A DNA stretch of 64,000 bases from an uncultured Muribaculaceae bacterium (lineage in GTDB: Bacteria; Bacteroidota; Bacteroidia; Bacteroidales; Muribaculaceae), in assembly GCA_947625935.1 (NCBI GenBank), contig CANQQE010000004.1, forward strand, positions 1 to 64,000, given 5' to 3'. Every line of letters starts with the position of its first letter. Positions within the stretch are counted from its first letter, which is position 1. Position numbers and translations under genes: made by a program. The notes beneath the pieces were generated by a model that saw only the letters and a list, made by a program, of their open reading frames with translations, was not told the origin of the DNA and made no database searches. Of this stretch, positions 1 through 10,799 are shown piece by piece.

Positions 1-87
1 GAGTCCGGTACAATACCGAACTCTTTCTCAAATCGGATAGTTAGTAACCTGTCCAACTTTTGGGGGTCACTTCACTTTGGTTGTTAG
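1..87 (+). pseudogene. Possible C-terminal end of a transposase or IS edge (partial)
   Basis: An open frame enters from the left edge of the window and stops at 85-87; its last residues read NLSNFWGSLHFGC. The DNA around 46-72 (cctgtccaacttttggggg) resembles sequence at the ends of Bacteroidales insertion sequences, from memory only. Only 28 codons are visible, so neither the family nor its completeness can be judged. If it is an IS end, the element sits directly after the capsid-like gene and may have cut that operon. Confidence 0.25.
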
Positions 88-117: not shown

Positions 118-1605
118 TTACTGACCGATCACGCGCAGATGGGTCTGAGGATAGCGCAGCACAAGGCAGCTCGCCTCGGTGATTACGATCGCGTCCGTGT
201 TTCTAACCCCTGAGCGGCGAAGGTCGAGCTTCTCCGTACGGAACGGCACATGGCAATATTTCGTGATATACTCCGGGTCTATGACCATACCGTCATAGGC
301 GTGGCCGCATTCATCGAACACTTCGCTCGCCAGCACATAGAGCGTGCCGAACTTGGTGCCTATCTCGGTGAAATCGATTCCCCATTTCGTCACGCGGTCA
401 CTGGCGGTGGCGATGCGGGTCAGATCCATGCGGTTGAGCGCGTCGATGAGCATTGTGCCTCCGATCAGCAGCTTGCGTGTCGAACCGGCGTTCTGTGTGA
501 ACGCCTCGCGGGTAAGCTCAACAAGTTTATCCTTGCTGATCGCACCTTTGGTATAGGTGACTTGGCGGTCGGTCTGATCCCAGATGCCCCCCGTGAGCAA
601 CACCTCGTTGCGCTTCTCGGTGTCATAGATTCGCGATTTGACTCCAAACAGGAAGTTTTTCTCCATCCCCAAGCGCATATCTATGATGGCTACCTCCTCC
701 TGGTCCGAGAAATCCCAACCCACCTCTTTGTTGGCGATTTTCTGGAACGTCGATTGCTCCACCTGAGCCTTGAATATCTGGCAATAGTTTTGCGCTTTCT
801 TAGGCAACGCCTCAAACTGTGCCGTCTGCACGTCAAGTTCGGCGGCGGCGCGCCCCATTCTGATCAGTTTGGTGCCTTTGGCCAAGTCAGGCATATTCCG
901 TTTGCCGTTATTGTCATAGCAGTTCGCCGGCAGCACATACAGTGTGCCGTTGGCGGTGCGCTGCACCACATAGAGCACGAGCGAGCCTGACGGATTCCCC
1001 TTGGAATCGGTGCCTTTGACGTCAGGGACGAGAATGGTTTCCGACGGCTCGAAAATCTGGGGGTCGGTCACCTGCAGCTCCACAGGGGAGTCGCCCGACG
1101 GGCCGTCGCCCTCGTAGGCCGCCGACACGGTGCTGACCGTAGGCTTCGTGTCGACCGAGTAATAATCCACCACCATGCTGCCGCAGGCGCGGGAGCCGCC
1201 CCAGCGCGAAATCTGGTCGATAGGGGTCGACATCGGGCGTATCTTCACTATGCGGTCGTCAATCTCATTGCGGAGCAGTCCGGGCGACGACTCCTCGCTC
1301 AACGACGTGGTCAGCGGCCCGTCGACGACGTGCTTGCCACCCGCGGTTCCGGCTATGACCACTCCGCTCGCAGCCATTATATCCCCGTCACCTCCGAGAG
1401 CCATCCACAGAGCCACTGCCGACAGGGCCACCAACAGTGTCACAATCCCGTTATCGCTTTTCACCCACTCCGTCAACTGCATGATCATATCCCCCAGCGT
1501 CTTCCTGTTGAGGTCTCTGTAGCCTCTCCTTTCCATCTGTATCTTCGACTTTTTTAAATTGCTCACTGATTTTATCGCTTTGGCGATACCTTTTAATAAT
1601 CCCAT
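118..1605 (-). CDS. Phage major-capsid-like protein with an N-terminal membrane segment
   Basis: 495 residues. From about residue 104 the protein looks like a tailed-phage major capsid protein of the HK97-fold type seen in Bacteroidota phages (SU10/DUF5309-like). The N-arm EIDDRIVKIRPMSTPIDQIS (114-133) is followed by beta-rich blocks including VLLTGGIWDQ, TKFGTLYVLASEVF and YDGMVIDPEYI near the C-terminus, typical of capsid spine and A-domain strands. The first 50 residues are basic and amphipathic, and residues 54-71 (IVTLLVALSAVALWMALG) would score as a transmembrane helix, which is unusual for a capsid subunit. The gene follows an acidic scaffold-like gene by 43 bp in one transcript. No protease, terminase or tail gene follows before the window edge. 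The family call rests on pattern recognition; an alternative is a membrane protein that borrowed a capsid fold. Confidence 0.62.
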   Translation of the reverse strand: MGLLKGIAKAIKSVSNLKKSKIQMERRGYRDLNRKTLGDMIMQLTEWVKSDNGIVTLLVALSAVALWMALGGDGDIMAASGVVIAGTAGGKHVVDGPLTTSLSEESSPGLLRNEIDDRIVKIRPMSTPIDQISRWGGSRACGSMVVDYYSVDTKPTVSTVSAAYEGDGPSGDSPVELQVTDPQIFEPSETILVPDVKGTDSKGNPSGSLVLYVVQRTANGTLYVLPANCYDNNGKRNMPDLAKGTKLIRMGRAAAELDVQTAQFEALPKKAQNYCQIFKAQVEQSTFQKIANKEVGWDFSDQEEVAIIDMRLGMEKNFLFGVKSRIYDTEKRNEVLLTGGIWDQTDRQVTYTKGAISKDKLVELTREAFTQNAGSTRKLLIGGTMLIDALNRMDLTRIATASDRVTKWGIDFTEIGTKFGTLYVLASEVFDECGHAYDGMVIDPEYITKYCHVPFRTEKLDLRRSGVRNTDAIVITEASCLVLRYPQTHLRVIGQ

Positions 1606-1648
1606 AATTTTTAATTTGTTAAATATTGATTAGTTACACAATGCTACC

Positions 1649-2086
1649 TCAATCCCATATGCTTCGGCGCGGACGGTTCAGAATAGTCGGCCCGCTTTCG
1701 CGTTCCTCCCACACCCCCGGTTCAGCCATCAGTGCCTCAATGCGCTCATTACGTCCCCTAAGATAACCGCGGCGCTCAGCCTCAGCAACCAGTGCTTCAA
1801 CACTCGGGCCATCTCCGGGCTCATCGCCACCTTCGCCGCCGCGCGCCACATCTTGCGGTTCCGGCTGATTTCCATCGTCGCCCGGCCCCACAGGGTCCCG
1901 GAGGGTGGTTTCCCGCTCTGTCGCCGCTGCGTCATTGTCTGTTTCCGCTTCCCCCACCGCGGCTGCCCCTGTTTCCCCTTCGGCAGAGGCTCCGGCGGCG
2001 GCTGTTCCCGCCGCCCCGGTTTCCCCTGCCGGTTCATCCTCACACCCCGCGTGCGCAGGCCCATTGAATTTGATTTCATCATCCAT
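1649..2086 (-). CDS. Acidic low-complexity protein, scaffold-like, before the capsid gene
   Basis: 145 residues. Residues 15-95 are almost only Ala, Gly, Glu, Asp, Thr and Pro and strongly acidic. Residues 98-120 (VEALVAEAERRGYLRGRNER) are predicted helical, and the protein ends in a basic-aromatic tail, RPRRSIWD. An acidic, partly disordered protein with a short helical C-terminus directly upstream of a major capsid gene is the usual position and composition of a phage scaffold protein, so that role is inferred; no sequence motif proves it. It is the first gene after the leader element at 2119-2167 and is separated from the capsid-like gene by 43 bp. The ATG at 2084-2086 is the first in frame. 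Confidence 0.55.
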   Translation of the reverse strand: MDDEIKFNGPAHAGCEDEPAGETGAAGTAAAGASAEGETGAAAVGEAETDNDAAATERETTLRDPVGPGDDGNQPEPQDVARGGEGGDEPGDGPSVEALVAEAERRGYLRGRNERIEALMAEPGVWEERESGPTILNRPRRSIWD

Positions 2087-2118
2087 AAACTTAAAAAACT
2101 TTTTAGTTAGTGATTACA

Positions 2119-2167
2119 CCGCAAAATTATCCCCTCCCGTCCCCATCCTCTCTGCGTTTTTCTCCCT
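2119..2167 (-). promoter_or_regulatory. Leader/promoter element A of the capsid operon (shared with 10841-10889)
   Basis: On the minus strand the -7 box TAATTTTG (complement of 2122-2129) is followed by GCGG and lies 36 nt before the scaffold-like start codon. Upstream of the box there is no TTTG at the -33 position; instead there is a purine-rich stretch ending in a conserved AAAACGCAG. The 49-bp block aligns without gaps to 10841-10889 in front of the connector/portal operon, 38 of 49 positions identical by hand count. Confidence 0.6.
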
Positions 2168-2184
2168 GAATTTTTATAACTTTG
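2156..2184 (+). promoter_or_regulatory. Probable promoter of the small membrane protein gene at 2224
   Basis: TAACTTTG at 2177-2184 fits the Bacteroidota -7 consensus TAnnTTTG, about 40 nt before the start codon. A T-run at 2156-2161 may serve as a weak -33 box with 15-16 bp spacing. It overlaps the edge of leader element A, so the two promoters are divergent and could compete. Confidence 0.4.
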
Positions 2185-2223
2185 CGCTGATATGTCTGAC
2201 AATAAGCCTAAATCACATTTAAC

Positions 2224-2553
2224 ATGAATATGACAACTGAACGAAAAATGCTGTTGCTTACGTTGCTTGGTCTCGCAATCCCGTTCGGCAACATAATCGG
2301 CCCTTATTTTATCAACTGCAAGACTCAGGGCGAGTTGCGTTTCCGTAAAACTTTAACCATTGTCGGTACAATACTCGTCGTAGTTGCAATAGCAATACCT
2401 GCCATGGGTTTGATGTCGGCTTTCGGCTCATCCGAAGTAGAGACAGTCGACCCTGATTCAATCACAAAATCCATAAGATGGGGATTTATACTGCCTGTGG
2501 GAATCCTCGTCACTATCGCAGCTCTGTGGCGTCGCACCCGGTTGGCTAAGTAG
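2224..2553 (+). CDS. Small inner-membrane protein, unknown function
   Basis: 109 residues with three hydrophobic segments: about 9-30 (LLLTLLGLAIPFGNIIGPYF), 44-66 and 86-101. The pattern, a short helix pair with a basic tail (RRTRLAK), resembles the many DUF4870-like or DUF4190-like small membrane proteins of Bacteroidota, but I recognise no specific family. The ATG at 2224 is followed by a second at 2230; both are possible. A -7 box lies 40 nt upstream. It is the first of three small membrane-protein genes on this strand (2224-3491), each likely lost or gained easily. Confidence 0.6.
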   Translation: MNMTTERKMLLLTLLGLAIPFGNIIGPYFINCKTQGELRFRKTLTIVGTILVVVAIAIPAMGLMSAFGSSEVETVDPDSITKSIRWGFILPVGILVTIAALWRRTRLAK

Positions 2554-2579
2554 GAGACGTGTCAAATTTCAGACAACTT

Positions 2580-2606
2580 GTAGGGTCAGCCCATGGGCTG
2601 ACCGCC
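2580..2606. repeat. REP-like palindrome, copy 1
   Basis: The core GGTCAGCCCATGGGCTGACC (2584-2603) is a perfect 20-bp palindrome, flanked by GTAG on the left and GCC on the right. Two related elements lie at 7295-7321 and 10924-10950. It stands in the 252-bp gene-free stretch 2554-2805, where I see nothing else beyond a GC-rich tail (2605-2665). Confidence 0.6.
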
Positions 2607-2805
2607 AACCGGCTGGCAATCAACTCGCATGACCGTTGCACCATTGTGCGCCTCTACAACCCGAGGGGAGAATCTACGTATTGAATTGATTTAACCATAG
2701 AATGGAATGCTAACTCCCAATTTGCGTAGGTCTTATCGCTAACCTCAACAAATGTTAATTTGTGATGAATTTAAATCAGCTTCTTGAAACGGGTGTTATT
2801 TCTGT

Positions 2806-3081
2806 ATGAAACAGCCCGATTATCCCAATCCCGGATTTGCACGCTAATTTGGCTCGTTGGCTTTGATTGCCATTGTGGTGGTGCAGTTCATCCCTTTTTC
2901 TGTGATTGTGGCCGCTTTAGGCTACCTCCCGTTTCTGACCTGCGTAGGCTATCGCGTGTACTACAGCTTCCGTCAGCGTTGCTATGGCTACGGTTGGATT
3001 ATGATTCTCGCCGGCCTTATGATGATCGGTGTCTTCATCGCCTCCTATATATTCTACACTAAAATCAGCCAACCCTTATGA
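2806..3081 (+). pseudogene. Small membrane protein with an in-frame stop after codon 13
   Basis: ATG at 2806 opens MKQPDYPNPGFAR, then TAA at 2845-2847, and the same frame continues without interruption to 3081 as FGSLALIAIVVVQFIPFSVI and onwards. A short proline-rich, polar N-terminus followed by two hydrophobic segments around a YRVYYSFRQRCYGYG turn is the plan of CD225/dispanin-like small membrane proteins (inference). A single C-to-T change (CAA to TAA) would explain the stop. Translation could also restart at TTG 2857, giving a 74-residue product. Its stop overlaps the start of the next gene by 4 bp, so coupling survives. Not certain whether it is dead, a restart gene, or a base-call error. 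Confidence 0.5.
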
Positions 3082-3491
3082 ATCAATCAGATAAATTTGT
3101 CCCCCGGAGCGTGGTACGCGACATCTACATTGTCATTGCCCTATATGTAGGCCTCACGGTGCTGATGTTCACCGGATGGCTGTCGGCCCAGTGGCTCAAC
3201 CGAGTCTCGATAGCGTGTATGTGCGTGGGTGCGTTTATGATTCCTGTGATATCACGCAATCTTCGCAGTTTCCTGTCGCTTGTTTCCTCTCCGAGCAGTG
3301 TGTCTCGACGGGTTTTGCCATGGCTGTGGTGCGCCATCGGCTCATTGATGGTATTTGCCCTGCTTGTCGGCGGCCTCTCGCCTGATTCGACACTTATGTT
3401 GGTGGTCTGTTCTGTCGGGCTTGCCTTCAACCTCCTGCTCGGCATCCTCATCCCTGCCGGCTATTTCTCGCCACAAAAAGATATCGATTGA
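3078..3491 (+). CDS. Membrane protein with four predicted helices, unknown function
   Basis: 137 residues. Hydrophobic segments lie at about 14-34, 43-58, 84-102 and 107-128, with a basic N-terminus and a short hydrophilic end (FSPQKDID). No catalytic or binding motif is visible. The ATG at 3078 overlaps the stop of the preceding small membrane gene (ATGA type overlap), which suggests the two are translated together and may form a complex. It is followed after 23 bp by the end of the oppositely oriented GNAT gene. Function unknown. Confidence 0.6.
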   Translation: MNQSDKFVPRSVVRDIYIVIALYVGLTVLMFTGWLSAQWLNRVSIACMCVGAFMIPVISRNLRSFLSLVSSPSSVSRRVLPWLWCAIGSLMVFALLVGGLSPDSTLMLVVCSVGLAFNLLLGILIPAGYFSPQKDID

Positions 3492-3514
3492 AAAATTTTC
3501 AATCCGAAGGGCCA

Positions 3515-4066
3515 TTATTCATCTGTTTCTTCCAAGTCAAAAAATAAAAGTCGGGTGGGCTCTGAGTCGATATCTTTGCTCAATGGCAAGAAATTATTCT
3601 TGGTATAAAATGGCACAGCGTCAACATATGCGTCAACAGTTATGAACCGGCATCCGGTTTTATTATCTATGACGAAATAAGACTTTATGAAATCGAGCAT
3701 GAAAGTCCCTAATGACAATCCTTTTGCAGAGATGTCAACACCAAGCCTGCAAATTTTTGTGGCAGGATAACTTTTTATACGTTTTTCATTAATAAATCGC
3801 TTTTTTCGGAATCGGTTAAAATCCGCTCTACTATCAAAATCCGATAAAGATACCCTGTCGTTTGCAAGACTAAAAAATCCGACTACCTGCTTGGTGTCCC
3901 TACGTTCAATGACATAGCTTACTGCTAATCTTGTCCTATGATAATGTTGTGATTCGTTTAAGATAAAGTCATTCAGGTCATCGTCACCACAGTTGAAGAA
4001 TTTGACTGATTCATCTTTTCCAAGGCGACGTATTTGGTATGTTTCCGCAATTTGAGTTGGAGTCAT
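3515..4066 (-). CDS. GNAT acetyltransferase, probable toxin of a toxin-antitoxin pair
   Basis: 183 residues with the GNAT fold: N-terminal strand-helix (YQIRRLGKDESVKFFNCGDD), a central strand with ICRLGVDISAKGLSLGTFML (the acetyl-CoA-binding loop) at about 122-141, and a C-terminal VPFYTKNNFLPL block. The proteins that sit behind a tiny gene like this, including TacT-type toxins, acetylate the amino group of aminoacyl-tRNA and stop translation; that activity is inferred, not shown. The loop reads A-K-G-L-S-L-G rather than the textbook QxxGxG, as in many TacT relatives. It starts 5 bp after the stop of the small gene at 4072-4224, and both lie behind a palindrome at 4272-4292 that could be the operator. 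Confidence 0.7.
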   Translation of the reverse strand: MTPTQIAETYQIRRLGKDESVKFFNCGDDDLNDFILNESQHYHRTRLAVSYVIERRDTKQVVGFFSLANDRVSLSDFDSRADFNRFRKKRFINEKRIKSYPATKICRLGVDISAKGLSLGTFMLDFIKSYFVIDNKTGCRFITVDAYVDAVPFYTKNNFLPLSKDIDSEPTRLLFFDLEETDE

Positions 4067-4071
4067 ATGGG

Positions 4072-4224
4072 CTATTTCACTAACATAGACATCGCAGCCT
4101 GGTAGTTGGCTTTGCGACGGTTACGAACTTCTGGTGTCTCCTTTGGCGGGTTTTTCATGCGTTCTTCAAATCTGCGGGCATCCTCGCCAAACAATATCGG
4201 TGTTTCTTTTATTGGTCTTGCCAT
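4072..4224 (-). CDS. Small antitoxin-like protein preceding the GNAT gene
   Basis: 50 residues from ATG 4224: MARPIKETPILFGEDARRFE, then a basic helical half with EVRNRRKANYQAAMSML. A frame extends upstream to 4260, but the ARPIKETP start fits the conserved beginning of such short Bacteroidales proteins and leaves a leader with a -7 box (TATCTTTG, complement of 4247-4254). It is not an obvious ribbon-helix-helix protein as in TacA; the C-terminal half probably wraps the toxin. The antitoxin role comes from its position, size and 5-bp spacing to the GNAT gene. Confidence 0.6.
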   Translation of the reverse strand: MARPIKETPILFGEDARRFEERMKNPPKETPEVRNRRKANYQAAMSMLVK

Positions 4225-4246
4225 TGCTCTATAGGTTTGATTTATA

Positions 4247-4292
4247 CAAAGATAAAACAATTTATCTGTACTAATTGCATTCTATGCAATTA
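4247..4292 (-). promoter_or_regulatory. Promoter and palindromic operator of the GNAT toxin-antitoxin pair
   Basis: The -7 box TATCTTTG is the complement of 4247-4254. Upstream of it, 4272-4292 is a 21-bp inverted repeat with arms TAATTGCAT and ATGCAATTA around TCT. The palindrome covers the place where the -33 box should be, as expected for an operator bound by the antitoxin or the toxin-antitoxin complex (inference). Confidence 0.5.
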
Positions 4293-4318
4293 AAAAACAA
4301 ATTATTAGTTAGTTTCGT

Positions 4319-4765
4319 TTATTTAAACGTCACTGTGCGGTTATAGATGAAATTGGCCACGGTGTAACCGACGTTGCCCGCCAATGTCGCCACCGCGTAG
4401 CCGCTGAACGTCAATCCTCCGATCACCCACTGCATCGCCCCAAGCGGAGTGCGATAAGTCAACGCCCACACTATCACAAACTGCAGTGCGTAGCACAGCC
4501 CGAAGCCAACCAGAAACTTTACCGCCTCGCGCTTGAAATCTTTACGCGAATGGAAAACCCACGTCTTGTTCCAGATAAACGAGTTGACAAGCCCGCAACC
4601 GTAGCCTATGGCGTTTGCCCCCATCGGCTTGATGCCTAAAAACGACTTGGTCACATAGATTACGATCAGCGTTACCAACGTGTTCATCACCCCCACCAAG
4701 GCGTATTTCACGAACTGTATCACAGCCGTCCGTCTGTTGTTTGTCATGGTGTCTTCCCTCTCCAT
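4319..4765 (-). CDS. GtrA family membrane protein
   Basis: 148 residues, four transmembrane segments. GtrA/DPMS-type proteins move lipid-linked sugars or assist membrane glycosyltransferases in cell-surface polysaccharide synthesis. The typical opening FVKYALVGVMNTLVTLIVIY (about 14-33), the middle GCGLVNSFIWNKTWVFHSRK and the end VANFIYNRTVTFK are all present. The start at 4765 gives MEREDTM; ATG 4747 (MTNNRRT) is equally good and closer to relatives. It lies 59 bp after the TRIC-type gene, on the same strand, and no glycosyltransferase is next to it, so its partner is unknown. Confidence 0.85.
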   Translation of the reverse strand: MEREDTMTNNRRTAVIQFVKYALVGVMNTLVTLIVIYVTKSFLGIKPMGANAIGYGCGLVNSFIWNKTWVFHSRKDFKREAVKFLVGFGLCYALQFVIVWALTYRTPLGAMQWVIGGLTFSGYAVATLAGNVGYTVANFIYNRTVTFK

Positions 4766-4824
4766 TATCTCTGTTCCGTATTGCTTTTTAGTTACTTATT
4801 GTTCATAATTGTCAGTGTCGTTGT

Positions 4825-5433
4825 TCACCCTTTTAGCACCGGCAACGACCATCGGTAGTGCACCGCTAAAAGACGCAACGCTATCGCCGTCAGGCCGCAC
4901 GCCGCTTGTTGAAGTATGTCGCCGCCACCGCCGATCGCTATAAGCCAGTAGACGACGCCCCCGGCTATGCACGCCGTGGCATAGACCTCCTTGCGGAAAA
5001 ACAGCGGTTCCTCGTTGATGAGTATGTCGCGCACCACGCCCCCAAACGCGCCCGTGATCATTCCCATCACTATCGCAACCCACATCGGGTAGCCCGTGGC
5101 CAGGCTTTTTTGTATGCCGATGACCACAAACAACGCCAGTCCGATCGTGTCGAATATCAGCAACATACGGTCGTGGCGTACGAGCAGATGCCTGAACAGC
5201 ACCACTATCGCCAGAGCGGCCCCAGTGACGGCCAGATACCACCACGTCTGCATCCAGAACACAGGAATGTCGAGCAGCACGTCGCGCAGCGTTCCGCCCC
5301 CTATTGCCGTCACAAGACCGACGGTGTAGGCGCCGAACCAGTCAAATCGTTTCACCGATGCGAGCCTGATGCCGCTGATGGCGAACGCTATGGTGCCTAT
5401 TACCTCTATGAGAAACAGAAATGTGGCTTCCAT
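4825..5433 (-). CDS. TRIC-type cation channel / YicG family membrane protein
   Basis: 202 residues from ATG 5433 (MEATFLFLIEVIGTIAFAIS). The UPF0126/TRIC family has two repeated halves of three helices; both halves show the hallmark glycine-rich loop: VTAIGGGTLRDVL in the first and MGMITGAFGGVVRDIL in the second. Prokaryotic members form trimeric potassium-permeable channels, some linked to glycine; the substrate cannot be read from the sequence. An open frame extends upstream to 5502 but would run into nth, and the ATG at 5433 leaves a 13-bp gap after the nth stop and matches the family start. Confidence 0.85.
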   Translation of the reverse strand: MEATFLFLIEVIGTIAFAISGIRLASVKRFDWFGAYTVGLVTAIGGGTLRDVLLDIPVFWMQTWWYLAVTGAALAIVVLFRHLLVRHDRMLLIFDTIGLALFVVIGIQKSLATGYPMWVAIVMGMITGAFGGVVRDILINEEPLFFRKEVYATACIAGGVVYWLIAIGGGGDILQQAACGLTAIALRLLAVHYRWSLPVLKG

Positions 5434-5446
5434 CTTGGCGGCGATT

Positions 5447-6112
5447 CTATCGTTTTGGCTTGTTGGTGACTTTACCCCCGGTCTGGTAATAGCGGCACGC
5501 ATCTCTAACCCCGCAGTTGAGGCAGTCGGGGCGGCGGGCCTTGCAGATGTACCGCCCGTGCAATATCAGCCAGTGGTGAGCCTTAGGTATTATATCGGCC
5601 GGGATATGCCTCATCAACGCCTTCTCCGTCGCCAACGGCGTGGTGCAGCCTGTCGTCAGCCCTATGCGGTCCGACACCCTGAAAACATGGGTGTCCACCG
5701 CCATAGCGGCCTTGTCAAACACCACCGACAGCATCACGTTGGCAGTCTTGCGGCCTACTCCGGGGATTTTAACGAGCTGGTCAAGCTCGCCGGGGACCTC
5801 CCCCCCGAACTCATCGACAAGCATCCGTGCCGCGCCGGCGAGATTGCGGGCTTTGTTGTTGGGGTAGCTGCACGATTTGATATACTCGAAAATCTCCTCC
5901 TGTGTGGCGGCCGCCATGTCGGCGGCCGTAGGGTAGGCTTCAAAAAGGGCAGGTGTGATCATGTTGACGCGCTTGTCAGTGCACTGGGCCGATAATATGA
6001 CGGCCACAAGCAGTTGATAGGGCGACTCGTAGTGCAGTTCGGTCTGGGGTAGCGGGTTGTTTGATTCAAACCACTCGATGCACCGTGCGTAACGCTCTTT
6101 TACTGTCATCAT
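5447..6112 (-). CDS. nth: Endonuclease III (DNA glycosylase/AP lyase)
   Basis: 221 residues, the usual length. Removes oxidised pyrimidines and cleaves the abasic site in base-excision repair. The helix-hairpin-helix LVKIPGVGRKTANVM carries the catalytic Lys122, Asp140 stands in AVDTHVFRV, and the C-terminal iron-sulfur cluster has the exact C-x6-C-x2-C-x5-C spacing (Cys190, 197, 200, 206). All key residues are intact. Two adjacent ATG codons (6112 and 6109) are possible starts. It follows pheS by 39 bp and precedes the channel gene by 13 bp, so pheS-nth-channel are probably one transcript. Confidence 0.95.
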   Translation of the reverse strand: MMTVKERYARCIEWFESNNPLPQTELHYESPYQLLVAVILSAQCTDKRVNMITPALFEAYPTAADMAAATQEEIFEYIKSCSYPNNKARNLAGAARMLVDEFGGEVPGELDQLVKIPGVGRKTANVMLSVVFDKAAMAVDTHVFRVSDRIGLTTGCTTPLATEKALMRHIPADIIPKAHHWLILHGRYICKARRPDCLNCGVRDACRYYQTGGKVTNKPKR

Positions 6113-6151
6113 TCACGCCGTTTTCCCTGATGATACTTAGTTATCTTCGTG

Positions 6152-7171
6152 TCAGTGTGCGGCCTGAAACTCCTCAAGGAAACGCTGGTCGTTTTCCGAG
6201 AACATTCTCAAGTCCTTCACCTGATATTTCAGATTCGTGATGCGTTCCACTCCCATGCCCAGGGCGAAACCGCTGTAGACATTCGGGTCGATGCCGCAGG
6301 CTTCGAGCACATTGGGGTCAACCATGCCGCAGCCGAGTATCTCTACCCAACCCGTCCCTTTGCAGAACGAACATCCCTTCCCGCCGCACAGGTTGCAAGA
6401 GATGTCCATCTCAGCCGACGGCTCCGTAAAGGGGAAATAGCTGGGGCGCAGACGTATCTGAGTCTCCGGCCCGAACATCTCCTGGGCGAAATAGAGCAAC
6501 GTCTGTTTAAGGTCGGCGAACGACACATTCTTGTCGACATACAGGGCCTCTACCTGATGGAAGAAGCAGTGGGCGCGTGCCGAGATTGCCTCGTTGCGGT
6601 ACACGCGGCCGGGGCAGATGATGCGGATCGGCGGTTTCTGACGCTCCATCACGCGGCTCTGAACCGACGACGTGTGCGTGCGCAGCAGCACGTCAGGCTC
6701 CCTGTTGATGAAAAATGTGTCCTGCATATCGCGTGCCGGATGGTCGGGAGCGAAGTTGAGCGACGAGAAAACGTGCCAGTCATCCTCTATCTCCGGACCC
6801 TCGGCGATGGTGAAACCGAGACGGCGGAAGATGGCGATAATCTCCTCCCTCACGATCGACAGCGGATGCCGTGTGCCGAGCGCTATGGGCGAGGCGGTGC
6901 GTGTCAGGTCGAGCCCGTCGGTCGCGGCGTCGGTGGTCTCTGTCGACTCCCGGAGCGAGTTGATTTTCTCAGTGGCCATTGTCTTCAGCTCGTTAAGTGC
7001 TTGGCCTATCGCTTTTTTATCTTGTGGCGCGACTTCACGGAAATCGTTGAAAAGCAGTGAGACAGATCCCTTCTTGCTCAGATACTTTATGCGCAGTGCC
7101 TCCACGGCGGCTGCGTCGCTTGCCGTCAGCGCGGCGATTTCTTCCTTGAGTCGATTGATTTTATCTAACAT
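6152..7171 (-). CDS. pheS: Phenylalanyl-tRNA synthetase alpha subunit
   Basis: 339 residues from ATG 7171 (MLDKINRLKEEIAALTAS); longer frames upstream would run through the leader and are rejected. The N-terminal coiled coil (about 1-85) binds tRNA; the class II catalytic domain follows with RVYRNEAISARAHCFFHQVE (motif 2), TEPSAEMDISC and the motif 3 GMGVERI near 305. It forms the alpha2-beta2 enzyme with PheT, which is not in this window, as is usual when pheS and pheT are apart in Bacteroidales. A cysteine-rich loop CNLCGGKGCSFCKGTGWVE is normal for the bacterial subunit. A well-spaced promoter lies at 7233-7263. Confidence 0.95.
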   Translation of the reverse strand: MLDKINRLKEEIAALTASDAAAVEALRIKYLSKKGSVSLLFNDFREVAPQDKKAIGQALNELKTMATEKINSLRESTETTDAATDGLDLTRTASPIALGTRHPLSIVREEIIAIFRRLGFTIAEGPEIEDDWHVFSSLNFAPDHPARDMQDTFFINREPDVLLRTHTSSVQSRVMERQKPPIRIICPGRVYRNEAISARAHCFFHQVEALYVDKNVSFADLKQTLLYFAQEMFGPETQIRLRPSYFPFTEPSAEMDISCNLCGGKGCSFCKGTGWVEILGCGMVDPNVLEACGIDPNVYSGFALGMGVERITNLKYQVKDLRMFSENDQRFLEEFQAAH

Positions 7172-7232
7172 TGTTGTGATATATTGGTCTTGGACGTATT
7201 GACGCGGTAACTCTCTGAAAACTACCGCCACG

Positions 7233-7263
7233 CAAAATTACAAAAAATCCACCCATTCCCAAA
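7233..7263 (-). promoter_or_regulatory. Promoter of pheS
   Basis: On the minus strand the -33 box TTTG (complement of 7260-7263) and the -7 box TAATTTTG (complement of 7233-7240) are 19 bp apart, a very good match to the Bacteroidota sigma-ABfr consensus, about 62 nt before the pheS start codon. Confidence 0.65.
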
Positions 7264-7294
7264 ACATTATTCCACATCCATTCCATCCCTCCCC

Positions 7295-7321
7295 GGTAGA
7301 GCCTGCCCACGGGCAGGCCGC
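7295..7321. repeat. REP-like palindrome, copy 2
   Basis: Arms GCCTGCCC (7301-7308) and GGGCAGGC (7311-7318) around AC, with GGTAGA on the left and CGCC on the right, the same flanks as the copies at 2580 and 10924. It lies between vsr and the pheS promoter and could act as a terminator for vsr or as an mRNA stabiliser. Confidence 0.6.
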
Positions 7322-7350
7322 CCCAAGACGCGCCCCCTCGGAAAAAATCA

Positions 7351-7854
7351 TCACTCCCCCCATTCGAGTTCAGCCTCCGCCGCGAGCTCGGTGTCTGCCT
7401 CAGGGAAGCTGTACGGGCTTGGAGCCTTCGGCTCGGTCTCAAACGCCCGCAGTGTCGTTATCAGACGCTCAAGTGTCTCATCACGCCGCACTTTGGCCAG
7501 CTCGCATTCCCAGATAGTGATGACGTTCCACCCCATTTGCCGCAACCGTGCCGCGACATCCCGGTCGCGTTCCCGGTTACGCTCTATCTTCCTCAGCCAG
7601 AAATCGCGGTTGGTCTTGGGGAAACGGCGGTGGCACTCATGGCCGTGCCAGAAACAGCCGTTGATGAAGATAACCGTCCGCAGCCTCGACAACACTATGT
7701 CAGGCCGGCCCGGAAGCTCCTTCTTGTATAGACGATAGCGGTATCCGTGCTGCCACAGATACCGCCTCACCGTCACTTCGGGGCGGGTGTCGCGCGACCT
7801 TATGCTGCTCATGCAGTGGTGCCGCTGTTCGGGTGTCATCACGTCGGTCATCAT
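7351..7854 (-). CDS. vsr: Very short patch repair (Vsr) endonuclease
   Basis: 167 residues from ATG 7854 (MMTDVMTPEQRHHCMSSIRS); ATG 7851 and 7839 are alternatives. Vsr nicks 5' to the T of T:G mismatches made by deamination of 5-methylcytosine. Family signatures are all present: SSIRSRDTRPE, the catalytic/metal region ELPGRPDIVLSRLRTVIFI and the zinc/His segment GCFWHGHEC, followed by FWLRKIERNRERD and WNVITIWECEL. No cytosine methyltransferase is adjacent, so this is an orphan; its partner, if any, lies elsewhere. The start leaves 37 bp to the phage-like gene at 7892, so vsr may be transcribed with the portal operon. The C-terminal 25 residues are an acidic extension. Confidence 0.88.
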   Translation of the reverse strand: MMTDVMTPEQRHHCMSSIRSRDTRPEVTVRRYLWQHGYRYRLYKKELPGRPDIVLSRLRTVIFINGCFWHGHECHRRFPKTNRDFWLRKIERNRERDRDVAARLRQMGWNVITIWECELAKVRRDETLERLITTLRAFETEPKAPSPYSFPEADTELAAEAELEWGE

Positions 7855-7891
7855 TATCTTAACGTCGCAACCCGTCCCCTTGTTATCCCTG

Positions 7892-8320
7892 TCACCAAAA
7901 ATTAGGCACGATTCTTCCACCCGTCGAGCGTCCCGCCAAAGCCGCCTGCACCGATTCGATTACAGCTTCGGCCTCCTTGCCGTAGTCCGCGGCGGCATTG
8001 CTGTCATAGCCGATGTTTGCCATCTGAAGCACACGCAGCGCGCATCCCTGTTCGATAATGCTTCTCACAGACGCGTCGTCCCCGCCGACAGTCACATCCA
8101 CTATATCCCCCTCCCCCGATAGGTTGGCGGTCCCTCCGGCTTTCAGAGCCGTCTCACCTATTGCCGCTCTGATTAGCGGCTCCAACGCGTCACGCCGGTC
8201 CGTTGTGAGCAGCGGCACCTGTGCTCGTTTCTCCTTGTTGTAATAGCTTCTGAGTGCCGATAGGGCGAAAATCTGGCGCTCTATCGCTCTGATTGATAAA
8301 CTGATGGTTGTCATGGTCAT
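7892..8320 (-). CDS. Unknown small protein, last of the portal-operon genes
   Basis: 142 residues, starting MTMTTISLSIRAIERQIFAL; two further ATG codons follow within four codons. The N-terminal third is helical and basic, the middle (LSGEGDIVDVTVGGDDASV) is strand-like, and the protein ends in GRIVPNFW. No family is recognised. Its start overlaps the stop of the gene upstream by 4 bp (ATGA), so the two are translationally coupled. Its place behind connector and portal genes suggests a head or packaging accessory protein, by context only. The short end with an aromatic tail recalls the RPRRSIWD end of the scaffold-like protein, which may be chance. Confidence 0.55.
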   Translation of the reverse strand: MTMTTISLSIRAIERQIFALSALRSYYNKEKRAQVPLLTTDRRDALEPLIRAAIGETALKAGGTANLSGEGDIVDVTVGGDDASVRSIIEQGCALRVLQMANIGYDSNAAADYGKEAEAVIESVQAALAGRSTGGRIVPNFW

Positions 8321-8748
8321 TTTCTCGTTAAGGTTTCATTTTCGGTCGATTGCCGGCGTGGTCGGCGGCGGCGCAACTGTTCATAGAGCTTCTTCCCGTA
8401 GCCGGGAGTGATGAAATAGCGCGAAGCCCTTTCGTCGGCGAGCACGCGGTTGAGAGCGGCGGCTATTGTCGGCTCCTCTCCCGATGCGATCACGGCATTG
8501 ACCTTACCCTCTATCTCATCCCACATCAGCCGTTTCTCATGTCGGCGGGGCTTCATCCCGTTGCGCACTCTGTAAAGCGTCGTCAGTGCGTAATCATAGT
8601 CGAGATAATACCCCGGTGCGTCGCTTCCGACGGCGCGGGCCACTATCTCCCCCGCCGACGGGATTTCTCCCCGTTCAAATGCCATTTTCGTCTGTCGGCG
8701 GCATTCGCGTTTGAAATCCTGGTCTCTGATTTCCCTTAATTCTGCCAT
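8317..8748 (-). CDS. Unknown basic protein of the portal operon
   Basis: 143 residues, high in Arg and Glu, predicted mostly helical: MAELREIRDQDFKRECRRQT at the start, YYLDYDYALTTLYRVRNGM in the middle, a conserved-looking RYFITPGYGKKLYEQLRRRR and a basic tail. It could bind DNA; a small terminase subunit or a transcription factor of the phage genes are conceivable but unproven. It is coupled by a 4-bp overlap to the next gene. Between it and the portal gene (8749-8841) lies a TATATTTG box (complement of 8789-8796), so it may have its own promoter in addition to read-through from the portal gene. Confidence 0.55.
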   Translation of the reverse strand: MAELREIRDQDFKRECRRQTKMAFERGEIPSAGEIVARAVGSDAPGYYLDYDYALTTLYRVRNGMKPRRHEKRLMWDEIEGKVNAVIASGEEPTIAAALNRVLADERASRYFITPGYGKKLYEQLRRRRPRRQSTENETLTRK

Positions 8749-8788
8749 AATAATATCGTCAATAATGTTGTTTTACCAATTATATTTG

Positions 8789-8796
8789 CAAATATA
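8789..8796 (-). promoter_or_regulatory. Possible internal -7 box before the 143-residue gene
   Basis: TATATTTG on the minus strand fits TAnnTTTG and stands 41 nt before the ATG at 8748. No TTTG is found 19-20 bp upstream, so it is weak or needs an activator. Confidence 0.3.
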
Positions 8797-8841
8797 CAAT
8801 CATGGATGGGCCTTATCTTTGCCCATCATTCTGTTTGTTGG

Positions 8842-10242
8842 TTAATTGATAATATCAATATTCTCAATCATGATTCTGTCGCGCCATTCTATGAACCCCC
8901 CGAACGTATCCAACAAATCGGCGAGAGCCACGGTCGCGTTGTGCACCTGGTTCTCATACATCGAGTTCCCTTTGGCCCCCGATGTCCCGTGACCGCTGAG
9001 AGCCTCGCTCACGCCCGAGATGTCGCGAAACAGCTTCATCTCCAGATCAAGCAGGTCATAGGCCCCGATGTCACCGCCGCGGCTCACGAGTTGTTGCGGG
9101 GCGGGTTCGCCGTTTCTCGGGTCATATGGGATTATTCCGTCACACGCCGACCATTGCTTCCCCACATCTTCCCAGCTCATGTTGCTTATCTTCTGTCGGT
9201 AGGGAAACAGGAGCACACCCTTGGCTGAGGTGCTCATAACATGGTCGATTAATGTGATCAGGCGGTTCACATATTTCTGTTGGTCTATTATATCCTCCAC
9301 AAACGAGTGGATCTCCCCGTCGACAAGCGGGTAGAGCTTCACTATGAATGGATGTTGGCCCGATGCGAGCGGCGAGCAGCGTTCATGAAGCAGGTCACCC
9401 CGCGGCGAGATGTAGCGGCAGTGCCATTGTATATCCGTCGTTTTGCGCCATTTCAGTTGTGGGCGGCCAGCCGATTGCCGTTGGCGGTTTTCACGTCTCA
9501 GGCCCTCCGCGGCTTCTGTGCTGAGTCGGCTCATGGTTCCCGTCTCGGGGTCATGGCACTCCACTGTCTCGCAGCTTTCCATAGTCCACACCTCCACCAC
9601 GCGGCAACGTCCGGCGGTGGCCGTGAAAAAACCGTCGCTCGTCTCGCCCGATTTCATGTCGCGGTAGATTGCCCTGAGCCGGTCGGCTGTGGCTGCGTCG
9701 CCGTGCGAGAATCTCATCACCACTTCGGCGAGGCTCATGTCGTGCAGCATCCCTATTAGTTCCGTGTCCCATCCCCTGATGTCGTTGATGCTGTTGATAA
9801 AAAAGCGGCGGGGGCTGACGTTGTCCACCCACACCCCCTGGCCCATGGGTCGGTGTTCCTTGACTACTCGCTGTATCGCGCATCCCGAAATCAGAAACTC
9901 CTCAAGCGTGCGGCAGTCAAGCTCATTAAGCTGGTTCACGCTGTAGGCTTTCCTGACTCTGCTGTCGGCCTTGGCCCCTTGTTGGGCGCGCCTGTCCCTG
10001 TAACGGCCTATGACACATTTCACCATCTGTCTGATCAGATTGTTGGTCAGAGGTGTGCGCCCGCAGCGCGATGCAAGTTCCTCCTCGCTGATGGTGCGCC
10101 CGTCACTGTCATAGACTATGTCGTTCCATTGGCGGCCATAGGTGAAATTCTTGTAGCGCTCCCGGCGTTGGCGCAGGTCGGCGAGCTTCAGCCATGCCCG
10201 GTGGGCGGCCTCAAGCACCTCCCGTGTTCTTGTTATCTCCAT
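8842..10242 (-). CDS. Phage portal-like protein
   Basis: 466 residues. The N-terminus has the layout of podovirus-type portals: a helical arm, then RYKNFTYGRQWNDIVYDSDG (31-50), LTNNLIRQMVKCVIGRYRDR (66-85), a wing region with RGWDTELIGMLHDMSLAEVV, and a stem/crown part with PFIVKLYPLVDGEIHSFVED and DLEMKLFRDISGVSEALSG. In phages the portal is the dodecameric ring at one vertex through which DNA is packaged. The protein ends soon after the SGVSEALSG block (ENIDIIN); many podovirus portals are 100-250 residues longer, so the barrel/C-terminal region is short or missing. It starts 14 bp after the connector-like gene. No terminase gene is near. Confidence 0.75.
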   Translation of the reverse strand: MEITRTREVLEAAHRAWLKLADLRQRRERYKNFTYGRQWNDIVYDSDGRTISEEELASRCGRTPLTNNLIRQMVKCVIGRYRDRRAQQGAKADSRVRKAYSVNQLNELDCRTLEEFLISGCAIQRVVKEHRPMGQGVWVDNVSPRRFFINSINDIRGWDTELIGMLHDMSLAEVVMRFSHGDAATADRLRAIYRDMKSGETSDGFFTATAGRCRVVEVWTMESCETVECHDPETGTMSRLSTEAAEGLRRENRQRQSAGRPQLKWRKTTDIQWHCRYISPRGDLLHERCSPLASGQHPFIVKLYPLVDGEIHSFVEDIIDQQKYVNRLITLIDHVMSTSAKGVLLFPYRQKISNMSWEDVGKQWSACDGIIPYDPRNGEPAPQQLVSRGGDIGAYDLLDLEMKLFRDISGVSEALSGHGTSGAKGNSMYENQVHNATVALADLLDTFGGFIEWRDRIMIENIDIIN

Positions 10243-10256
10243 ATTCTCGATTTTGT

Positions 10257-10799
10257 TTAGTTTGTTAATGTGTCTGCGGGGATGGTCGCCAAGGCGCGTT
10301 CATCAAGCCGGTAGAAACCGTCGGCGGGCTCAAGCACGCATTTCAGCGAGACGATGCGCGAAGCGGTCGATACCGGAGTGTAGAGGTGCAGATACCCCTG
10401 GTGGGCGACCGCTACAGGCTCCTCGCTCCCTCCGCGGCTGTAAGGCGATCGTTGCAATGACGCTATGGGCGAATCTGGCCCGACTATGATAGCCGTCTGC
10501 CGCCACCCCTCGAGCTTCACTTCCACCACCCTTCGGCACTCCGCAGGGAGAGTGATGGTCGCGCTACCGTCATCCTGATGCTTCAGGGCAACGTCGCGCG
10601 CCATCTCGCTAACCTCCATCAGCGACAGGTCACCATTGTCGAGCAGATTCAGATACCACTCCCTCATTTCCATAATCTGCAGTCGGTCAAGGTCGACGCC
10701 GTCAGTGCGCGACAGCTCGCAATCGCTCCTCAGCGGCTCGAAATAACGCTTCAGCTTCCACACCCCCAGCATCTCCTCGGTTGAAAGATTCAGTAACAT
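10257..10799 (-). CDS. Head-tail connector / adaptor-like protein
   Basis: 180 residues. The N-terminal half is helical (MLGVWKLKRYFEPLRSDCEL, then REWYLNLLDNGDLSLMEVSE); the C-terminal half is strand-rich, with ITLPAECRRVVEVKLEGWRQ and a RIVSLKCVLEPADGFYRLDE end. A helical N-terminus followed by a beta domain with the 'LP-x-x-CRRV' turn is how head-completion adaptors next to podovirus portals look. It is first in the operon, directly upstream of the portal gene with 14 bp between them, which is a common phage order. The assignment is by context and pattern, not by a decisive motif. Leader element B (10841-10889) precedes it. Confidence 0.55.
   Translation of the reverse strand: MLLNLSTEEMLGVWKLKRYFEPLRSDCELSRTDGVDLDRLQIMEMREWYLNLLDNGDLSLMEVSEMARDVALKHQDDGSATITLPAECRRVVEVKLEGWRQTAIIVGPDSPIASLQRSPYSRGGSEEPVAVAHQGYLHLYTPVSTASRIVSLKCVLEPADGFYRLDERALATIPADTLTN

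What the first reader, a model, noticed from the sequence alone, without database searches (positions are those of the whole stretch)
118..10799. Split set of phage head genes interleaved with housekeeping genes
Seen: capsid-like (118-1605) and scaffold-like (1649-2086) genes in one operon; connector-like (10257-10799), portal-like (8842-10242) and two unknown genes (7892-8748) in another, separated by pheS, nth, gtrA, a channel and a toxin pair. No terminase, integrase, tail, lysis or repressor gene is visible, and all reading frames are open. Inference: a phage-derived particle kept by the host (gene-transfer-agent-like or a DNA-free capsid) rather than a dying prophage, since decay usually breaks frames. 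The split also recalls gene transfer agents whose genes are dispersed.
Basis: partly seen in the sequence, partly recalled or inferred. Interest (0 to 1): 0.85.

Follow-up and report, generated by a model that had tools for sequence, protein, structure and literature searches.

The report
Conserved phage-particle genes in gut Bacteroidales
A family of gut bacteria carries, scattered among ordinary genes and kept by selection, most of the parts of a small virus particle with its DNA-packing motor, which looks more like a machine for passing on the cell's own DNA than like a virus.

Summary
Confirmed, and the interpretation largely holds, with corrections. The window carries an SU10-type capsid gene, a scaffold remnant, a P22-type portal, a connector, a probable small terminase and one unknown gene, all open. 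Each of four markers hits 137-141 of 150 family genomes (29 of 30 genera); 123 have all four. Ten genomes of six other Bacteroidales families, apparently including Barnesiella, carry a dispersed sister set. Six of the eight gene families map to one Bacteroides phage, BS-TP4. dN/dS is at most 0.45. Best reading: a podovirus-type particle taken over from phage and kept as a gene-transfer-agent-like DNA packager. Packaging and transfer are inferred; no lysis or receptor-binding gene was identified. Against: within the family, gene trees follow a species marker weakly; two near-complete genomes lack terminase and nozzle; a compact provirus (IMG/VR) nests with the outer families in the capsid tree, so a single ancient takeover is not established. 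The literature searches turned up no description of such a system in this group.

The parts
118..1605 (-). Major capsid protein, 495 aa, SU10 type; hydrophobic N-terminal helix at about residues 53-71
   Evidence: Pfam PF17236 E 5e-51, phrog_26635 E 6.5e-84; BS-TP4 gp11; hydrophobicity scan
1649..2086 (-). Shortened scaffold protein, 145 aa: acidic N-terminus, C-terminal GYLRGRNE...RRSIWD motif resembling the end of the 250-aa scaffolds of the outer families
   Evidence: scaffold-family profile hit E 5e-4; same place directly before the capsid gene in relatives; sequences; match to BS-TP4 gp10 alone is weak, E 0.028
7892..8320 (-). Unknown 142-aa protein; travels with 8317-8748, beside the portal or the terminase
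   Evidence: own family beside 8317-8748 relatives in 10 other fetched portal loci and beside the terminase in G013; no outside match
8317..8748 (-). Probable small terminase subunit, 143 aa
   Evidence: homologous to phage gp9 (E 1e-11 among 19 phage proteins), which lies upstream of the large terminase in BS-TP4 and overlaps it in prophage L106; phrog_27246 weak in own protein (E 0.013), strong in the prophage copy. Assigned by position; no structure or activity was obtained
8842..10242 (-). Portal protein, 466 aa, C-terminus shorter than in phages
   Evidence: phrog_156 E 2e-37, PF16510 E 4e-16; lengths 430-524 in 39 family rows, 620-709 in 10 outer-family rows, 506-680 in 12 phage-side rows
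10257..10799 (-). Head-tail connector, 180 aa
   Evidence: BS-TP4 gp13, E 1.5e-8 among 19 phage proteins; beside the portal in relatives
40..70 (-). Near the end of a repeat element, probably an insertion sequence, just beyond the capsid gene's 3' end
   Evidence: same 31 bases at three places in the genome, with different neighbours on one side and a contig end 39-40 bases away on the other

Best explanation
These genes are part of a tailed-phage particle with a short tail (podovirus type) that ancestors of Muribaculaceae, and of six other families of the order, took over from phages related to BS-TP4 and kept. SHOWN: most sampled family genomes keep capsid, portal, large terminase with intact ATPase and nuclease residues and a nozzle-like protein, and the loci read also show a scaffold remnant and connector; nearly all pairs measured are under purifying selection; the genes sit in two or more chromosomal places, and near relatives share the flanking genes. 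INFERRED: scaffold and capsid build a prohead on the portal; the terminase, with the gp9-like protein, packs host DNA; connector and nozzle close the head and form a short tail; particles leave a subpopulation of cells by lysis and deliver host DNA to relatives. Because the genes lie apart, a particle that packs a short stretch cannot carry its own full gene set, which is the gene-transfer-agent way of life. In the window genome a rearrangement, possibly driven by the repeat element beside the capsid gene, split the usual block.
For: Capsid, portal, terminase and nozzle hit in 138, 141, 137 and 137 of 150 family genomes, each in 29 of 30 genera; 123 of 150 have all four, 118 if the capsid must be at least 45% identical. 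Own terminase and nozzle at G000:C50:2681-4549 and 153-2663. Six families fit one phage, BS-TP4. Terminase residues over 62 rows, phage rows included: Walker A K and T 62, Walker B E 62, nuclease D, D and E 62, HDD in all 61 rows with letters there. Nozzle model pLDDT 86.6, pTM 0.82; best PDB matches two SU10 virion/tail chains, then a P22 tail-complex chain. dN/dS at most 0.45 in every defined pair. Terminase tree: 52 dispersed-set rows apart from 18 phage-side rows (SH-aLRT 84), family clade 99, outer clade 100. 11 of 13 distinct locus pairs with capsids at least 90% identical share two or more flanking genes (after removing six same-record pairs and three repeats). All four genes occur in 10 of 10 outer genomes with a capsid above 50% identity, never all together.
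Against: No particle, packaged DNA or transfer has been seen. No lysis, receptor-binding or regulator gene was identified, though none was searched for genome-wide. Inside Muribaculaceae the rank correlation with SecDF is weak (capsid 0.11, 451 of 2000 permutations as high; portal 0.18, 277; terminase 0.31, 54; connector 0.34, 39), and the window's capsid and terminase stand apart from genus mates G037 and G012 (in the smaller terminase tree it joins G037), so exchange between lineages is likely. A compact provirus in IMG/VR, L319, has a capsid 69% identical to that of outer genome G208 and nests in the outer clade of the capsid tree, and with G283's compact set is sister to the dispersed clade in the terminase tree. 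Seven genomes with a capsid hit of at least 45% have no terminase hit; six of them, among them G005, G053 and G104 at 99% completeness, were searched again with the window genome's terminase and still had none; G005 and G104 lack the nozzle too. G048, G084 and G147 (62-87% complete) lack all four. In-frame stops were reported in 3 capsid, 6 portal, 8 terminase and 2 nozzle matches on the partly cut lists; of four looked at, three lie at the very edge of the match, and G077's terminase ends early. Nozzle TM-scores are low (0.35 at best) and a microtubule-doublet chain ranks fourth. The portal lacks roughly 120-135 C-terminal residues of the phage form. Many synonymous distances are saturated.
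Confidence: 0.62

Rival explanations
1. A host-kept particle that does not transfer genes: a killing particle of the PBSX kind, which packs host DNA but is used against competitors.
For: The same parts would be needed; the nozzle evolves fastest (dN/dS 0.13-0.31, identity 39-66% in 8 pairs, measured on partial or whole frames), as expected of a part that meets rivals' surfaces. PBSX from passages of PMC7667829.
Against: No toxin or receptor-binding gene was noticed with the set; of eight proteins held against PADLOC one had a weak hit (E 0.004).
Confidence: 0.14
2. Phage or satellite origin without lasting domestication: related phages keep entering and their parts stay, so that family-wide presence reflects repeated infection or several separate takeovers.
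For: Compact relatives exist: prophage-type loci L105, L106, L107, L109, L111 and L112, G283's compact set L099, and provirus L319, whose capsid is 69% identical to an outer-family one and nests among them. Gene trees fit the species marker weakly within the family.
Against: All Muribaculaceae dispersed-set rows form one clade without phage rows in the trees made; near relatives share flanks; a fumarase-type gene lies by the capsid locus in five of six outer families; a single capsid match in 126 of the 138 genomes with a hit.
Confidence: 0.12
3. A DNA-free protein shell: capsid and portal kept as a compartment, the terminase being irrelevant.
For: G005 and G104 have capsid and portal hits while terminase and nozzle are not found.
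Against: In 125 of 150 genomes a capsid of at least 45% identity and a terminase hit occur together; the terminase keeps its catalytic residues and is under purifying selection. A shell needs no portal, connector or nozzle.
Confidence: 0.07
4. A slowly decaying relic with no present function.
For: In-frame stops are reported in some matches, G077's terminase ends early, G119, G120, G122 and G144 have capsid matches in pieces, and some genomes lack parts.
Against: dN/dS far below 1 in several genera and invariant catalytic residues.
Confidence: 0.05

Closest known systems
Bacteroides phage BS-TP4 (PQ571277) and its kin BF1-TP2, BKO1-TP3
   Same: Capsid 37-39%, portal 35-37%, terminase 39-40% identity to the window genome's proteins; connector, gp9 and gp26 by profile, scaffold gp10 only weakly.
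   Different: The phage is compact, with an annotated endolysin and very large proteins gp3 and gp14; the host set is dispersed, with a shortened portal and scaffold, and the rest was not found in what was searched.
Provirus IMGVR_UViG_2681813420_000001 (L319; 15.8 of 27.5 kb read)
   Same: Terminase, gp9-like, scaffold, capsid, gp12-like, connector and tail-like genes of these families; capsid 49% to the window's, 69% to outer genome G208's.
   Different: Compact. No portal or nozzle was found in the stretch read; an adjacent gene has a tail-fibre match.
FpGTA of Faecalibacterium (PMC12946183: abstract, passages and section 9 read)
   Same: Podovirus-like, two operons far apart, with terminase, portal, scaffold and capsid; particles and about 9-kb packaged DNA shown by its authors.
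   Different: Found in Faecalibacterium, a different phylum; its second operon has lysis and receptor-binding genes, none identified here. Sequence relation not tested.
RcGTA, BaGTA and BhGTA (PMC9662315: passages, including part of the abstract)
   Same: Host-encoded, virus-derived, vertically transmitted; the passages hold them to be three independent exaptations.
   Different: Other hosts; relation to this set not tested.
PBSX of Bacillus subtilis (passages of PMC7667829)
   Same: Defective-phage particle that packs random host DNA.
   Different: Acts like a bacteriocin rather than a transfer agent according to those passages.

Membership tests
Gene transfer agent (features partly from passages of PMC9662315, partly recalled) | Encoded in the cell's chromosome by genes from a tailed phage | tested here: met
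Gene transfer agent | Vertical inheritance with the host | tested here: inconclusive
   Family clade, many genus clades and shared flanks agree; order within the family follows SecDF weakly, and a compact provirus nests in the outer capsid clade
Gene transfer agent | Kept under purifying selection | tested here: met
   with saturated synonymous distances in many pairs
Gene transfer agent | Packaging motor: portal plus large terminase with catalytic residues | tested here: met
   Residues kept in 61-62 of 62 rows; activity itself not tested
Gene transfer agent | No integration or replication genes of its own | not tested
   No systematic search; the window's neighbours that were searched are not such genes
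Gene transfer agent | Packs mostly host DNA, less than its own gene set | not testable with these tools
   Needs purified particles
Gene transfer agent | Delivers DNA to recipient cells | not testable with these tools
   Needs a transfer assay
Gene transfer agent | Release by lysis | not tested
   No lysis gene was looked for genome-wide
Prophage | Compact, complete set found in few strains | tested here: not met
   Dispersed and family-wide; integrase not specifically searched
Encapsulin-type compartment (definition recalled) | Capsid-fold shell without portal or terminase | tested here: not met
   Portal in the usual block and terminase in the genome

The most novel reading that the evidence does not exclude
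A gene transfer agent older than the split of Muribaculaceae from six other families of the order (Barnesiella apparently among them), exapted from a BS-TP4-related podovirus independently of all described agents, with its genes scattered along transcription-unit lines and working today in a common bacterial family of animal guts.
Probability: 0.48. Interest if true: 0.93.

Novelty: new variant of a known kind. Interest (0 to 1): 0.85.

Why it matters
If true, a family that is abundant in animal guts (recalled) carries its own built-in route for passing chromosomal DNA between cells, which would bear on how these bacteria share genes and on how bacterial DNA in gut virus fractions should be read. 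A 2020 mouse-gut study (PMC7667829, passages seen) reports 46 contigs with patterns of possible generalised transduction or GTA-carried DNA, and Bacteroidetes as the largest group among transduction-pattern contigs (83); the passages seen name no agent for these. The set also shows a phage taken apart over a chromosome, with compact prophage, dispersed outer-family and rearranged family forms all available for comparison.

Tried and rejected
DNA-free capsid for this genome: weakened when the terminase was found. Strain-specific prophage: rejected. Host genes inserted into an operon: replaced by rearrangement, since the order of the two halves is swapped against relatives. Nozzle by sequence against PDB chains: nothing useful; capsid a weak match to the VP1 phage capsid (E 2e-6); portal none. 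Virus contigs: capsid 2 loci, L319 and L318, the latter a 10-kb contig holding a Muribaculaceae-type block and its mirror image, probably an assembly artefact; terminase 16 loci at 37-45%. A tail-like gene of 302-1260 aa in outer families had no match among the 19 BS-TP4 proteins tested.

Literature: 'gene transfer agent' with Bacteroidales 13 papers, with Muribaculaceae 0, with Barnesiella 0; 'gene transfer agents' with Bacteroidota 9; domesticated, prophage, Bacteroidetes, major capsid protein and gene transfer agents together 1, on Rhodobacteraceae, seen as a listing only; transductomics with gene transfer agent 8; Muribaculaceae with virus-like particles, bacterial DNA and transduction 0; Bacteroides temperate phages from sewage 0; 'domesticated prophage' with Bacteroidales and capsid 0. 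Opened: PMC12946183 (abstract, passages, section 9), PMC7667829 (passages), PMC9662315 (passages). The other listed papers were not opened, and bioRxiv and most subscription journals are not held, so I say only that no description turned up.

Rows dropped: capsid fragments G133 and G078, divergent prophage capsids G030, G002p, G139p and G090p, and G118 from the capsid tree; G089 gave no SecDF match; G012, G052, G013 and G029 had no portal row in the 29-genome comparison and G029 no portal stretch fetched; the trees used chosen subsets (33 and 26 rows). G127, labelled genus g3, carries a capsid identical to g6 genome G116's and is probably contaminated.
Full report
What is there. The window is the first 64 kb of contig C4 (160 kb) of a 3.69-Mb, 150-contig assembly. 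On the minus strand it holds, in reading order, connector (10799-10257), portal (10242-8842), a 143-aa gene (8748-8317), a 142-aa gene (8320-7892), a Vsr endonuclease, PheS, an Nth-type glycosylase, a PF03458 membrane protein, GtrA and a GNAT gene, and further on a 145-aa acidic gene (2086-1649) and the capsid gene (1605-118). Capsid and portal are certain from library profiles. The other four have no library family below E 0.01; their names come from relatives.

It is family-wide. The capsid gene has a hit in 138 of 150 sampled family genomes and 29 of 30 genera, the portal in 141 of 150. Six of the 138 capsid hits are weak or prophage-like, leaving 132 at 45% identity or more. Some portal, terminase and nozzle hits are also prophage copies or partial, so those counts are upper limits. 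In a sample of 198 genomes of the order, 14 have a capsid hit, three of them in this family; ten of the other eleven, from six family codes, are 51-56% identical; the eleventh is 35% and looks like a prophage. One of the ten has a contig of the same length as Barnesiella sp. An55's; the named collection also listed a Coprobacter record and many Muribaculaceae records.

The missing motor. A large terminase was found next to the head block of G022, and its relatives occur in 137 of 150 family genomes. The window's genome has one, G000:C50:2681-4549, on a different contig, with a gene of 836 aa directly before it. Relatives of that gene occur in 137 of 150 and lie within about 1 kb of the terminase in 14 of 21 terminase stretches read. 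Its predicted structure (pLDDT 86.6, pTM 0.82) has as best PDB matches two SU10 chains (virion, tail), a P22 tail-complex chain, then a microtubule-doublet chain, and further down Pa223, Carin 1, HRP29 and, at rank 42, T7 tail entries; TM-scores are low, 0.35 at best. I read it as a tail nozzle. 123 of 150 genomes have a hit for all four markers, 118 with the stricter capsid rule; G048, G084 and G147 have none.

Phage source. Profiles of the families were held against 19 chosen proteins of Bacteroides phage BS-TP4 (of 42 annotated features in the 50 kb fetched): capsid gp11 (E 5e-114), portal gp4 (6.5e-145), terminase gp7 (2e-212), connector gp13 (1.5e-8), 8317-8748 family gp9 (1e-11), 836-aa family gp26 (2e-15), acidic protein gp10 only weakly (0.028); the 7892-8320 family matched nothing. 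The acidic protein resembles the end of the 250-aa scaffolds of the outer families and is found in the window by their profile (E 5e-4), so it is best seen as a shortened scaffold. In the phage collection three Bacteroides phages alone matched the portal, and the same three were the best for capsid and terminase. A closer relative exists among virus contigs: L319, from a 27.5-kb IMG/VR contig of which I hold 15.8 kb, has terminase, gp9-like, scaffold, capsid, gp12-like, connector and tail-like genes in one compact run.

Dispersal. In 18 of 22 family genomes whose loci were read the order is scaffold, capsid, connector, portal on one strand (G092 has two other genes inside); the window's genome, G024, G130 and G017 have it split. 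The gp9-like and 142-aa genes follow the portal in 11 of these 22 (window included), and follow the terminase in G013. In the ten outer genomes capsid, portal, terminase and nozzle are never all together; the nozzle lies beside the portal in several. Compact sets also exist in the same genomes' neighbourhood, such as G283 contig C32 beside G283's dispersed set. In the window's genome the sequence next to the capsid gene is the end of a repeat present three times, always at a contig end, which makes an insertion element a possible cause of the local split.

Selection and descent. Nei-Gojobori dN/dS: capsid 0.02-0.24 (15 of 16 pairs defined), portal 0.03-0.16 (9 of 12), connector 0.10-0.45 (13 of 14), terminase 0.04-0.18 (10 of 12), nozzle 0.13-0.31 (7 of 8, several on partial frames), SecDF 0.03-0.17 (4 of 4); many synonymous distances exceed 1. 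In the capsid and terminase trees many genera hold together, the family forms one clade, and BS-TP4-like phages stand outside. The outer families form one clade of the terminase tree; in the capsid tree the compact set of G283 (long branch) and provirus L319 fall among them. In the 33-row terminase tree L319 and G283's compact set are sister to the 20 dispersed-set rows, whose clade has support 80. Distances agree with SecDF over 25-29 genomes (rank r 0.27 capsid with 16 of 2000 permutations as high; 0.59 portal, 0.66 terminase and 0.77 connector with none), but within the family only weakly (0.11, 0.18, 0.31, 0.34). The window's capsid and terminase stand apart from genus mates G037 and G012 in the larger trees. 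I take this as old residence in Muribaculaceae with exchange among relatives; strict vertical descent, and one takeover for all seven families, are not shown. Flanks: 20 of 22 locus pairs with capsids at least 90% identical share two or more neighbours; without six same-record pairs and three repeats this is 11 of 13. The share falls with distance, as listed with repeats: 15 of 41 at 80-90%, 16 of 121 at 70-80%, 19 of 2300 at 50-60%.

Catalysis and breakage. Over 62 terminase rows (dispersed-set and phage), the Walker A lysine and threonine, Walker B glutamate and three nuclease acids do not vary, and the HDD triad is kept in all 61 rows with letters there. In-frame stops were reported for 3 capsid, 6 portal, 8 terminase and 2 nozzle matches on lists that are partly cut. 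Of four that I looked at, those of G012, G141 (terminase) and G058 (portal) lie at the very edge of the match; G077's terminase ends early and is probably the row without the HDD triad.

Mechanism and limits. The parts suffice on paper to build a prohead, fill it and close it with a short tail. Lysis, receptor-binding and regulatory genes were not identified (and not searched genome-wide), and nothing here shows expression, particles, packaging or transfer. Seven genomes with a capsid lack a terminase hit; six were searched again with another query and still lacked it, so the set can lose its motor. The closest proven system is FpGTA of Faecalibacterium: podovirus-like particles from two distant operons with about 9 kb of host DNA (PMC12946183, section 9). 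The literature searches named in Tried and rejected turned up no description of such a system in this group.

Noticed in passing
window 118-1605, residues 53-71; relatives: Many of these capsid proteins begin with a hydrophobic, membrane-like helix: 25 of 44 family rows, 10 of 10 outer rows and 6 of 11 phage-side rows, by a simple hydrophobicity threshold. Unusual for a capsid protein as far as I recall; it may mean assembly at the membrane.
   Followed up: partly
loci L095, L096, L097, L100, L102: A gene of the fumarase cluster (Pfam tested on the L095 copy) lies by the capsid locus in five of six outer families, a sign of a fixed chromosomal place.
   Followed up: partly
loci L077, L083, L084, L086, L088, L097: An ion channel gene (PF07885 in the L077 copy) lies near the capsid block in several genera and one outer family; whether it belongs to the system is unknown.
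   Followed up: no
L102:11778-15254, L100:5030-8374, L097:3963-7745: Large tail-like gene beside the connector in outer families, weak matches to tail and virion families in the L102 copy; no counterpart was seen in the Muribaculaceae stretches read.
   Followed up: partly
nozzle family, own copy G000:C50:153-2663: The nozzle changes faster than the other parts: 39-66% identity in 8 within-genus pairs in which capsid and terminase keep 77-97%.
   Followed up: partly
L318 (IMGVR_UViG_3300035327_000422): A 10-kb contig in the virus collection holds a Muribaculaceae-type capsid-connector-portal-gp9-like-142aa block followed by its mirror image; probably an assembly or amplification artefact. Whether the sample was a virus fraction is not known.
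   Followed up: partly
G127 (loci L011, L033): Genome labelled g3 carries a capsid identical to that of a g6 genome, probably contamination of the assembly.
   Followed up: no
BS-TP4 record PQ571277, 20340-22436: The phage's large terminase is annotated as a tail spike protein in the public record.
   Followed up: yes
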